Positions 2,666-4,177 of a stretch of 20,232 nt of DNA are shown here, piece after piece. Positions within the stretch are counted from its first letter, which is position 1. Every line of letters begins with the position of its first letter. Location: positions 1 through 20,232 of the IMG/VR virus record IMGVR_UViG_3300027704_000219; one strand, written 5' to 3'. Source of the DNA: a virus. A program made the translations under genes and the position numbers. The notes below the pieces were generated by a model that saw only the letters and a list, made by a program, of their open reading frames with translations, had not been told where the DNA came from and made no database searches.

Positions 2666-2860
2666 TCAGAACTCCTCGTGTGTTGGGGCGTCTTCTTCTG
2701 GCGCAGCCCACGCCATGGCCTCGTTGAACTTGATCGAGGCGAATTGAAGGCCTGCGTCGAGCAGGTAGTCGGAAACGGCTTGCTTGATGGCTTCGTGCGC
2801 ATCAATCGGAGTGAGGCCGATGGCGCCCTGCAGCTTCCCGGCGAGTTGGGCTTCGGTCAT
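2666..2860 (-). CDS. Small hypothetical phage protein (64 aa)
   Basis: This 64-residue acidic protein (MTEAQLAGKLQGAIGLTPID start, EEDAPTHEEF end) is predicted largely helical. ATG at 2860 overlaps the upstream stop by ATGA and the end is two bases from the next start, so it sits inside a continuous operon. No motif or family is recognised. Its reality rests on the overlaps and on the absence of any competing frame with a better ribosome site. Confidence 0.55.
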   Translation of the reverse strand: MTEAQLAGKLQGAIGLTPIDAHEAIKQAVSDYLLDAGLQFASIKFNEAMAWAAPEEDAPTHEEF

Positions 2861-3024
2861 GCAACCCTCCCCGTCAGTGCCTCAACCACGGCTTGGTGCT
2901 TCACACGCAGGGTTGCGAGTTCTTCGCGCGCCAGGCGCAGCACCTTCTCGGTTTCGCTTTCCTGCTTGCGCAGGCTGATCCGCCGCGCAGCCAGGCGTGC
3001 GGCCGTGGCGCTGGCCGCGGCCAA
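2857..3024 (-). CDS. Possible small basic coiled-coil protein, start uncertain
   Basis: The frame ending at 2857 encodes a helical, charged segment (SLRKQESETEKVLRLAREEL and following) and overlaps the next gene by ATGA, which argues that it is translated. The frame stays open upstream through the tRNA gene, but the tRNA makes starts there implausible. No ATG or GTG lies between the tRNA and the coiled-coil part; the TTG at 3024 is the only common start codon and lacks a clear Shine-Dalgarno. It would give 55 residues. Treat the start as unresolved. Confidence 0.4.
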   Translation of the reverse strand: MAAASATAARLAARRISLRKQESETEKVLRLAREELATLRVKHQAVVEALTGRVA

Positions 3025-3047
3025 GCTGCTTGGGGTGTGGGAGTGAC

Positions 3048-3123
3048 TGGAGCGGCCAACGGGAGTCGAACCCGCAACCACGGATGTGGAAGAACCGTGC
3101 TCTGCCAGTTGAGCTACAGCCGC
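3048..3123 (-). tRNA. tRNA-Gly (anticodon UCC), phage-borne
   Basis: The minus strand folds into a full 76-nt cloverleaf with an encoded CCA (3050-3048). The acceptor stem is GCGGCTG with TGGCCGC (two G-U pairs), the D-stem is GCTC/GAGC, and the T-arm is GCGGG-TTCGACT-CCCGT. The anticodon loop CTTCCAC gives UCC, which reads GGA. Discriminator U73 and the G1-C72, C2-G71, G3-C70 pairs are the known bacterial tRNA-Gly identity elements, so charging with glycine is expected. The anticodon stem CGGTT/ATCCG has one T-T mismatch but extends with A26-T44 and C25-G45. It lies 6 nt downstream of a structured RNA ending in a U-tract, on the same strand as the replication operon. Confidence 0.88.
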
Positions 3124-3128
3124 AGAAA

Positions 3129-3258
3129 GAAAAAGCCCGCGCGCCCCACCTTGAAAAGCATCCGTCGCTGTCATCACGAGCGGATCGCTGCCCAGGGAGG
3201 AAAAGCAGCCGGCCACGACATCTGGCCGAGACGACAAGGTGGTTGTGGCACGCGGGCT
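3129..3258 (-). ncRNA. Highly structured RNA element ending in a U-tract (candidate novel sRNA or regulatory terminator)
   Basis: On the minus strand, 3258-3247 pairs with 3145-3134 (12 bp; the single non-Watson-Crick pair is a U-G wobble on this strand but A-C on the other). 3242-3235 pairs perfectly with 3153-3146 (8 bp), with a 4-nt ACAA bulge between the two helices. Inside the closing stem are three hairpins: CGGCCA/TGGCCG with a 7-nt loop, GCTGC/GCAGC with a loop holding CCTCCC, and ATCCG-C-TCG/CGA-CGGAT with a 9-nt loop. The outer stem is followed by five U residues (3134-3130). No convincing gene lies in it. It could be an independent sRNA, or a cis-acting terminator/antiterminator between the cro-like gene and the replication genes. 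Confidence 0.55.
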
Positions 3259-3328
3259 GGAAATGGCGGCCCCGCCCTGCGGCTTACGATGGGTGTTCTT
3301 CACGCAACCATCACCGAAGGACGGGACC

Positions 3329-3607
3329 ATGGAAAGCTCGAATCTGGATGTCATCGCCATCGCCGACGCCCTCAACCAGACTCTTGCGAGGGTGATGGCT
3401 CAGGACTGCGCGATACAAGCGCTAACCGCCCTTCTGAGTCCAGAGCAAGGAAAGGCATTCGCGCAAGATTTGCGGCAGCGTGTGGCCCGATCAATGCAGA
3501 TGCACGCTCACCACAGCACTCCGGCAATGGACGAGGCAATGACGTTGCAGCTGAATGCGTTCCTCGAATCCGCAGGGCACGCGCCACCGCGACCACCAGG
3601 CGATTGA
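3329..3607 (+). CDS. Hypothetical phage protein (92 aa) opposite the leftward transcript
   Basis: The ATG at 3329 (Shine-Dalgarno-like GAAGG) is preferred to the longer frame beginning at 3239, whose extra N-terminus overlaps the structured RNA. The product is helical (NLDVIAIADALNQTLARVMA, then SPEQGKAFAQDLRQRVARSM) and ends in a proline-rich tail. I recall similar small proteins next to repressors in Comamonadaceae prophages but know no function. It converges with the cro-like gene with only 5 bases between the stops, so leftward transcription from the cro-like promoter runs antisense to it. Confidence 0.6.
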   Translation: MESSNLDVIAIADALNQTLARVMAQDCAIQALTALLSPEQGKAFAQDLRQRVARSMQMHAHHSTPAMDEAMTLQLNAFLESAGHAPPRPPGD

Positions 3608-3612
3608 AGCGC

Positions 3613-3873
3613 TCACCCATGGCTCACCTCGCTGGTGGAGGGCTGGGGTTTGCGGCGCGGCGGGCGGCATGCAAGGAGCGCATCGCGCGAGACCTTGCCG
3701 CCTGTCAGTCGCTGAATGGCGCTGCTGTAGTCGGTTTCGCCGGTCCATTCGGTTCGCGGCAGGTGCCCGACACACTCCCACTTGCGGATGGCTTGGCCGC
3801 TGACTTGAAGCCCCGCGGCAAGGACGCCGAGGCCAACCGATTCGATGGCCAGGGTGATCAGATTGGTGCTCAT
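3613..3873 (-). CDS. Cro/YdaS-like helix-turn-helix repressor
   Basis: This 86-residue protein carries a short helix-turn-helix (about residues 16-36, GVLAAGLQVSGQAIRKWECV), followed by the HLPRTEW and AIQRLTGGKVSRDAL blocks that mark YdaS/Cro-like phage regulators. It is the first gene of the leftward transcript, and its start lies 7 bases from a perfect operator palindrome, so it probably acts as Cro by repressing the CI promoter and itself. The likely promoter (TTGTCA, 16 bases, TAGACT) puts the transcription start almost on the ATG, implying a leaderless or nearly leaderless message. The C-terminal RRKPQPSTSEVSHG tail is probably disordered. Confidence 0.78.
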   Translation of the reverse strand: MSTNLITLAIESVGLGVLAAGLQVSGQAIRKWECVGHLPRTEWTGETDYSSAIQRLTGGKVSRDALLACRPPRRKPQPSTSEVSHG

Positions 3874-3908: not shown

Positions 3909-3946
3909 GAACTAATTGGTAGGGCCGAAAAATGTACTTTTGGCCG

Positions 3947-4177
3947 ATGGACAAGCAATCAACAAAACCTGATGCGAAGTCGGACGTTCTGTCCGGTTTT
4001 GCGCAGCGCATGCATGAACTTTGCGACGACTGGAAGATGCCGGGGCACGGCCGCCAGACGCACCTAGGAGCAAAGTTCAAGGTGACGCCCAGGCCGGCAG
4101 GCAACTGCCGAAAGTCGCCAAGCCCGCCGCGTGCAGGCTTTTTTGCGCCCAAACGGCAGGCTCTAACCAATAGTTAA
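3947..4177 (+). pseudogene. Truncated CI-like repressor (N-terminal DNA-binding part only)
   Basis: The frame (ATG at 3947, or 3932 with five extra residues) starts like phage CI repressors: DVLSGFAQRMHELCDDWKM, then GRQTHLGAKFKVTP, which is helix 2 and the turn of the helix-turn-helix. After the next few residues the similarity stops. The remaining residues are proline-rich nonsense, and the coding stretch overlaps two RNA hairpins, the second ending in six T. Typical CI proteins are about 200-240 residues with dimerisation and self-cleavage domains; only 76 remain. The operators on both sides are intact. Either the gene lost its 3' part by deletion or this is a minimal repressor without a C-terminal domain. 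Confidence 0.6.
4095..4144 (+). terminator. Two hairpins with T-tract within or after the truncated CI gene
   Basis: CGGCAG-GCAA-CTGCCG (4095-4110) is a perfect 6-bp hairpin with a GNRA tetraloop. It is followed by AAGCC (4120-4124) pairing with GGCTT (4136-4140), with two more internal GC pairs, and then a run of T to 4144. The second hairpin looks like an intrinsic terminator for the rightward CI transcript, placed before the OL-like operators. Confidence 0.5.

What the first reader, a model, noticed from the sequence alone, without database searches (positions are those of the whole stretch)
3129..3258. Unexplained multi-hairpin RNA ending in a U-tract just before a tRNA-Gly
Seen: an outer stem of 12 bp (one U-G wobble only on the minus strand) plus an 8-bp helix separated by a 4-nt bulge, enclosing three hairpins, one with a CCTCCC loop that could pair with Shine-Dalgarno sequences, and followed by five U. 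A wobble that exists on one strand only, and a U-tract on that same strand, point to minus-strand transcription. It matches no RNA family I can name. Inference: either a phage sRNA or a cis-acting terminator/antiterminator (at the lambda tR1 position, or like HK022 put RNA) controlling the replication operon.
Basis: partly seen in the sequence, partly recalled or inferred. Interest (0 to 1): 0.8.

Follow-up and report, generated by a model that had tools for sequence, protein, structure and literature searches.

The report
Clamped phage copy of host sRNA
A virus of beta-proteobacteria carries its own version of a small regulatory RNA that its bacterial hosts keep next to a haem gene; the virus has closed the RNA inside a long stem that probably also serves as its transcription stop, and related viruses preserve that arrangement by paired mutations.

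Summary
The observed RNA is real: minus strand, 3130-3258, z = -4.8, no shuffle as good. It is not family-less. Its hairpins H1 (UUUUCCUCCCUGG loop) and H2 (GAUGACA loop) are homologous to the Burkholderiales chromosomal sRNA anti-hemB (Rfam RF02837; ncS04, Hfq-bound in B. cenocepacia). The window scores 27.4 bits (cut-off 49.5), but a host-only profile finds it at E = 7e-10, and a core model hits 242 of 301 genomes of a host family. Host copies end in a local terminator hairpin. The phage copy instead has a 12 + 8 bp clamp around three hairpins; its 3' arm abuts the U-tract. The same clamp occurs in three other phage lineages, always ahead of replication genes. One was met through protein homology alone, with a different 5' arm and a re-matched 3' arm. 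Fourteen of 40 pairs change on both sides among four sequences (0/500 shuffles). Most likely a trans-acting, anti-Shine-Dalgarno sRNA made as the end of the early (cro) transcript at a tR1-like site, so also an attenuator. Homology and clamp are shown; function is inferred. The neighbouring tRNA-Gly is particular to this phage. A new variant of a known kind.

The parts
3130..3258 (-). Whole clamped RNA (P1/P2 clamp enclosing three hairpins, ends in U-tract)
   Evidence: Fold z = -4.8; covariance model R2 finds same architecture in other phages; covariation
3247..3258 (-). P1 5' arm AGCCCGCGUGCC
   Evidence: 12 bp with 3134-3145; compensatory changes in L228
3235..3242 (-). P2 5' arm CCACCUUG, after the 4-nt ACAA bulge
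3210..3228 (-). Hairpin HA CGGCCA-GAUGUCG-UGGCCG
   Evidence: Three of six pairs change on both sides among four phages; host copies also fold a hairpin just before H1
3187..3209 (-). Hairpin H1 with loop UUUUCCUCCCUGG; CCUCCC at 3195-3200; homologous to first hairpin of RF02837 anti-hemB
3160..3185 (-). Hairpin H2 with 7-nt loop GAUGACA (3169-3175)
   Evidence: Same loop in host sRNAs and phages
3134..3153 (-). P2' (3146-3153) and P1' (3134-3145): 3' arms of the clamp, replacing the host's local terminator hairpin
   Evidence: Long-range dG -28.5 vs local -4.5 kcal/mol
3124..3134 (-). U-tract UUUUUCUUUCU between the clamp and the tRNA
   Evidence: Sequence
3048..3123 (-). tRNA-Gly(UCC); about 80% identical to the tRNA-Gly of Pseudomonas phage D3 and kin; absent beside the RNA in the other clamped-RNA phages
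3613..3873 (-). Cro/YdaS-like regulator; its transcript (promoter-like site 3908-3881) would run into the RNA
   Evidence: PHROG 35 transcriptional repressor E 2e-5; Pfam YdaS E 1e-4, below cut-off; promoter scan
3329..3607 (+). Opposite-strand small ORF between cro-like gene and RNA; no family match; a non-homologous ORF sits in the same place in L230
3284..3314 (.). Near-palindrome (+ strand CTTACGATGGGTGTTCTTCACGCAACCATC) upstream of the RNA, identical over 27 nt in L213/L230
   Evidence: weak Rfam Ms_IGR-7 match 28.7 bits
456..2860 (-). Downstream early operon: small ORF 2666-2860, 1948-2298 (58% identical to L213 homologue), HNH 1409-1951, DnaT-like replication protein 456-1412

Best explanation
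The element is a phage-encoded homologue of the Burkholderiales anti-hemB sRNA (RF02837). SHOWN computationally: (1) HA-H1-H2 correspond to the hairpins of host and accessory copies, with the same H1 anti-Shine-Dalgarno loop and H2 GAUGACA loop. (2) The host's local terminator hairpin is replaced by a clamp, P1/P2, whose 5' arm lies before HA and whose 3' arm abuts the U-tract. (3) The clamp is conserved by paired changes in four phage lineages. (4) The gene lies ahead of the replication genes, on the cro side. INFERRED: the RNA is transcribed from the early promoter as the 3' end of the cro transcript (or from an unrecognised promoter of its own). The clamp plus U-tract terminates or pauses RNA polymerase and gives an Hfq-type 3' end; the clamp pairs both ends, giving a long-lived sRNA. 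Its exposed H1 loop pairs with purine-rich Shine-Dalgarno regions and blocks translation of the targets of the host sRNA, and possibly of phage mRNAs. Because termination uncouples cro from the replication genes, the same element attenuates the early operon, and downstream expression needs read-through.
For: Homology: Rfam anti-hemB full-length alignment 27.4 bits, E 1e-4, and 26.2 bits for L213; profile of 138 host sequences without any phage copy finds the window at E 7e-10 and L027 at 2e-10; host loci reach RF02837's cut-off at up to 65.8 bits and lie divergent from hemB; core model R1 hits 242/301 genomes of the family. Clamp: model R2 from window + L213 finds the full architecture in L228/L229, met by a protein search that used no RNA sequence (E 4e-9); 14/40 pairs with two-sided changes, 87.9% cells paired, 0/500 shuffles, slid controls 34-48% paired; long-range pairing -22 to -30 kcal/mol against local -2.6 to -12.4 in phages, the reverse on average in 113 host copies. 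Position: ahead of replication genes in all four lineages and 8 nt after cro in L228. Host ncS04 = anti-hemB is a 105-nt Northern- and RACE-verified transcript, cited there as Hfq-bound (PMC5688073). Best phage pairing for H1: -17.0 kcal/mol on the GGGGAGGG Shine-Dalgarno of ORF 2666-2860.
Against: No expression data for any phage copy. No target is known for the host sRNA; a search for a shared Shine-Dalgarno target gave only unrelated genes. Window falls below the RF02837 cut-off. A loop of about 100 nt is unusual for an intrinsic terminator. Only four distinct clamped sequences; L027 shows P1 only in its own fold, not in the model alignment. The pattern searches that collected host copies fixed the two loop sequences, so their invariance in A1 is partly by construction.
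Confidence: 0.72

Rival explanations
1. Purely cis-acting: a tR1-like terminator or attenuator (or a put-like antiterminator) of the early operon. The anti-hemB-like hairpins were captured as a ready-made terminator-proximal domain and no longer act in trans.
For: Position ahead of the replication genes in all lineages, directly after cro in L228; U-tract after the clamp; no convincing promoter of its own.
Against: A terminator does not need the conserved unpaired loops CCUCCC and GAUGACA, which are the best kept parts. No Rfam antiterminator match and no boxA-like site.
Confidence: 0.17
2. Decoy: the phage RNA competes with the host anti-hemB sRNA for Hfq or for its mRNAs, undoing host regulation rather than exerting it.
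For: Same-sense homologue with the same loops; phage RNAs that neutralise host sRNAs are known (AgvB, AsxR; PMC12197685).
Against: It would block the same sites as the host sRNA, so repression should add, not be relieved, unless the clamp hides the loops; the H1 loop is unpaired in all four folds.
Confidence: 0.1
3. 5' leader or processing element of tRNA-Gly, with RNase P making the 3' end, as for C4 RNA of P1/P7.
For: tRNA starts directly after the U-rich stretch.
Against: No tRNA beside the RNA in L027, L213/L230, L228, L229.
Confidence: 0.03
4. Chance structure or coding region.
For: A 172-codon minus ORF spans the region (2857-3375); GC-rich DNA folds easily.
Against: Spacing between the two loops varies by single bases among copies, clamp covaries, fold beats all shuffles.
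Confidence: 0.02

Closest known systems
anti-hemB sRNA (Rfam RF02837; Burkholderia RNA 7; ncS04 of B. cenocepacia)
   Same: Order H1 (UCCUCCCUG loop) then H2 then U-tract; full-length Rfam alignment; H2 GAUGACA loop shared with the Roseateles/Rhizobacter-type hemB copies; a hairpin just before H1.
   Different: Below the Rfam cut-off; in a phage early region, not beside hemB; terminator hairpin replaced by a long clamp around three hairpins.
Burkholderia double-hairpin sRNAs (RF02278, ncS03/05/27/62)
   Same: Two hairpins with CU-rich loops complementary to ribosome binding sites.
   Different: No Rfam match to RF02278 in the window; different size, clamp absent.
Neisseria sibling sRNAs NmsR (compared with double-hairpin RNAs in PMC5688073)
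   Same: CU-rich unpaired stretches aimed at Shine-Dalgarno regions.
   Different: No sequence relation tested; chromosomal tandem; no clamp described in the text consulted.
C4 RNA of phages P1/P7 (RF01695)
   Same: Phage early-region structured regulatory RNA.
   Different: No Rfam match even at E up to 5; not tied to a tRNA in the relatives.
lambda tR1 / HK022 put RNA
   Same: Position between cro and replication genes; structured RNA followed by U.
   Different: No put or nut signature found; enclosed hairpins belong to an sRNA family.
DicF and other prophage RNAs (DicF, IpeX, AgvB, AsxR, PasA-D)
   Same: Phage-borne RNAs acting on host mRNAs or sRNAs; DicF is cut from an operon transcript.
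   Different: None of those in the passages consulted is described as a clamped copy of a core host sRNA.

Membership tests
RF02837 anti-hemB | Score at or above the gathering cut-off of 49.5 bits | tested here: not met
   27.4 bits for window, 26.2 for L213; host copies reach 51.9-65.8
RF02837 anti-hemB | H1 hairpin with UCCUCCCUG loop | tested here: met
RF02837 anti-hemB | Second hairpin, and a U-tract at the 3' end | tested here: met
RF02837 anti-hemB | Local rho-independent terminator hairpin after H2 | tested here: not met
   Replaced by long-range P1/P2 clamp
RF02837 anti-hemB | Location beside hemB in the chromosome | tested here: not met
   Phage early region; hemB context only in host loci
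RF02837 anti-hemB | Detectable common ancestry of the core | tested here: met
   Host-only profile E 7e-10 in the window
RF02837 anti-hemB | Hfq binding and discrete transcript | not testable with these tools
   Reported for host ncS04 (PMC5688073), no data for phage copy
Intrinsic terminator at tR1 position | GC-rich stem then U-tract downstream of cro | tested here: met
   loop length unusual
Intrinsic terminator at tR1 position | Termination activity | not testable with these tools
   Needs transcription assay or Term-seq
HK022 put / lambda nut antiterminator | put hairpins or boxA/boxB | tested here: inconclusive
   No Rfam match; no boxA-like GCTCTTTA with at most one mismatch between cro and the RNA; boxB not searched separately and a put model may not be in Rfam
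C4 RNA RF01695 | Rfam match | tested here: not met
   Not among matches up to E 5

The most novel reading that the evidence does not exclude
The clamp is a target-sensing attenuator: because the terminator stem can close only if HA, H1 and H2 have folded and are free, pairing of H1 or H2 with a host mRNA (or binding by Hfq) during transcription opens the clamp and lets polymerase read into the replication genes, so the phage reads the state of a host sRNA network while making an sRNA of the same family.
Probability: 0.1. Interest if true: 0.9.

Novelty: new variant of a known kind. Interest (0 to 1): 0.62.

Why it matters
It shows phages taking over a core bacterial sRNA and rebuilding its 3' end while keeping its two loops. 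Since the host sRNA has no known function in the papers found here, a phage that keeps just the loops points to them as the working parts and gives a natural gain-of-expression test. The clamp is a design in which one stem would serve as both end protection and terminator, and it ties an sRNA to the early-operon switch.

Tried and rejected
Direct blastn of the RNA against phage and plasmid records found no homologue; the host core and the L027 RNA found none in phages either, and the host core one plasmid-collection replicon of Ideonella. Proteins 3329-3607 and 3613-3873 gave no viral relatives. Among 24 contigs related through the replication protein, only L011 carries a copy, with a local terminator; it lies next to a YedK-like gene, probably host flank. 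CCTCC-plus-U-tract look-alikes in L005 and L025 were not supported by R1. The Ms_IGR-7 and mir matches were set aside as the RNA's identity. Most viral pattern hits L206-L217 and L261-L268 were judged chance; only L213, L265 (= L228's contig), L229 and L266 were real. Clamp model R2 in 800 host genomes gave weak hits, those inspected being host-type copies, or nothing; its first look scores only eight candidates a genome, so this is weak evidence of absence. A common host target with CAGGGAGGAAA before ATG mostly returned the sRNA itself and unrelated genes.

Full report
CHECK OF THE OBSERVATION. The minus strand of 3130-3258 folds exactly as described: 12-bp P1 with one U-G pair, ACAA bulge, 8-bp P2, three hairpins, CCUCCC loop, U-tract. 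MFE -69.2 kcal/mol, z = -4.8, 0/200 shuffles as good. The plus strand also folds well (z = -4.1). tRNA-Gly(UCC) lies at 3048-3123 minus. At curated Rfam thresholds only the tRNA is found. The window is a 20,232-base virus record.

WHAT IT IS. With permissive thresholds the RNA aligns full length to Rfam RF02837 anti-hemB (27.4 bits, E 1e-4, cut-off 49.5). A pattern built from the two loops (TTTCCTCCCTGRGC ... GATGACA) hit at least 119 stretches of bacterial genomes, nearly all Burkholderiales (sequences). Host copies reach the RF02837 cut-off (L039 65.8 bits) and in L039, L029 and L062 sit divergent from a HemB-like gene (identification by reading the sequence). Because the pattern fixed the loops, their invariance there is partly by construction; the independent tests are as follows. 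A nucleotide profile made only from 138 host copies finds the window at E 7e-10 and L027 at 2e-10. Core model R1 hits 242 of 301 genomes of one host family, often with extra copies elsewhere (2-10 per genome among eleven genomes). The literature calls the B. cenocepacia orthologue ncS04: 105 nt, Northern and RACE verified, Hfq binding cited, no change in expression under the conditions tested, function unknown (PMC5688073).

THE CLAMP. Host copies have a hairpin just before H1, then H1, H2 and a local terminator. In the window the local terminator is missing; the 20 bases before the U-tract pair instead with bases ahead of HA. The same arrangement was found in L027, L213/L230 and, through a search with a downstream protein and not with RNA, in L228 and L229, plus L266: six records with the window, four distinct sequences. 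Model R2, built from window and L213 only, recovers L228/L229 over its whole length at E 4e-9. On the R2-fitted alignment of four sequences 14 of 40 pairs change on both sides, 87.9% of cells pair and 0/500 shuffles match; slid controls pair 34-48%. The alignment leans towards the structure because it was fitted to it, and shuffles ignore relatedness; the slid controls and the blind L228 hit guard against this. Duplex tests of the 5' flank against the terminator arm gave 46, 38, 85 and 9 of 2000 shuffles as good, for window, L213, L027 and L228. In L228 the P1 5' arm (within TTTCGCCCCCACGCC) matches the start of a separate small ORF in L230, so its 5' arm probably has another origin and the 3' arm has been re-matched to it; this last step is inference.

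WHERE IT SITS. L230 shows the full layout: a Peptidase_S24 (CI-type) repressor, a small gene in the cro position, a small ORF, an opposite-strand ORF, the clamped RNA, then replication genes. In L228 the RNA begins 8 nt after the stop of the cro-like gene. The window has a Cro/YdaS-like gene, an opposite-strand ORF, the RNA, the tRNA, then the operon with a DnaT-like replication protein. L027 has the RNA ahead of a small gene and a primase-like gene; its upstream side is cut off. Window and L213 share homologous downstream proteins (58%; 57% over 101 residues of the replication protein). The tRNA is absent from the others.

HOW IT MAY WORK. Shown: homology, clamp, loops, position. Inferred: transcription with cro, termination at the clamp, Hfq binding at the U-tract, end protection, and translational block through H1. 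In the window the strongest H1 pairing among 25 assumed starts is -17.0 kcal/mol with the GGGGAGGG Shine-Dalgarno of ORF 2666-2860 in the same operon; this is one prediction, and by inspection the first genes after the RNA in L213 and L228 lack such a long match. No shared host target was found.

COMPARISON AND NOVELTY. It works like, and descends from the same ancestor as, anti-hemB, but fails defining tests (Rfam cut-off, local terminator, hemB neighbourhood) and is therefore filed as a divergent clamped variant, not as a member. It matches no Rfam antiterminator or C4 model. Phage RNAs that act on host RNA networks are known (DicF, IpeX, AgvB, AsxR; PMC12197685; Pas sRNAs, PMC13192938). I found no report of a phage homologue of anti-hemB or of a clamp terminator; the library searched is open-access only and my searches were few, so this is not proof of absence.

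Noticed in passing
window about 3284-3314 (+ strand CTTACGATGGGTGTTCTTCACGCAACCATC); L213 4734-4747: Near-palindrome between the RNA and the opposite-strand ORF, identical over 27 nt in L213/L230 although flanks differ; resembles Rfam Ms_IGR-7 (28.7 and 26.9 bits, cut-off 45). May be an operator, a promoter element or a leader hairpin.
   Followed up: partly
window 3932-4177 +: ORF at the repressor position looks like a truncated CI-type N-terminus followed by a terminator-like sequence; the repressor may be broken or replaced. Judged by eye only.
   Followed up: no
L065, L100, L123, L139, L047, L131 and others: Extra copies of the host sRNA core lie away from hemB, some near IS, phage-like or metal-transport-like genes, up to ten in one genome record (G009), suggesting that the sRNA spreads on mobile elements.
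   Followed up: partly
window 3048-3123 -: tRNA-Gly(UCC) is about 80% identical to that of Pseudomonas phage D3 relatives, though the surrounding phage differs.
   Followed up: no
window 3329-3607 + and L230 3240-3512 -: Small ORFs without detectable similarity occupy the same opposite-strand slot between cro and the RNA.
   Followed up: partly
L031 5634-5724: Xanthine (NMT1) riboswitch match above cut-off in a host locus, unrelated to the finding.
   Followed up: no
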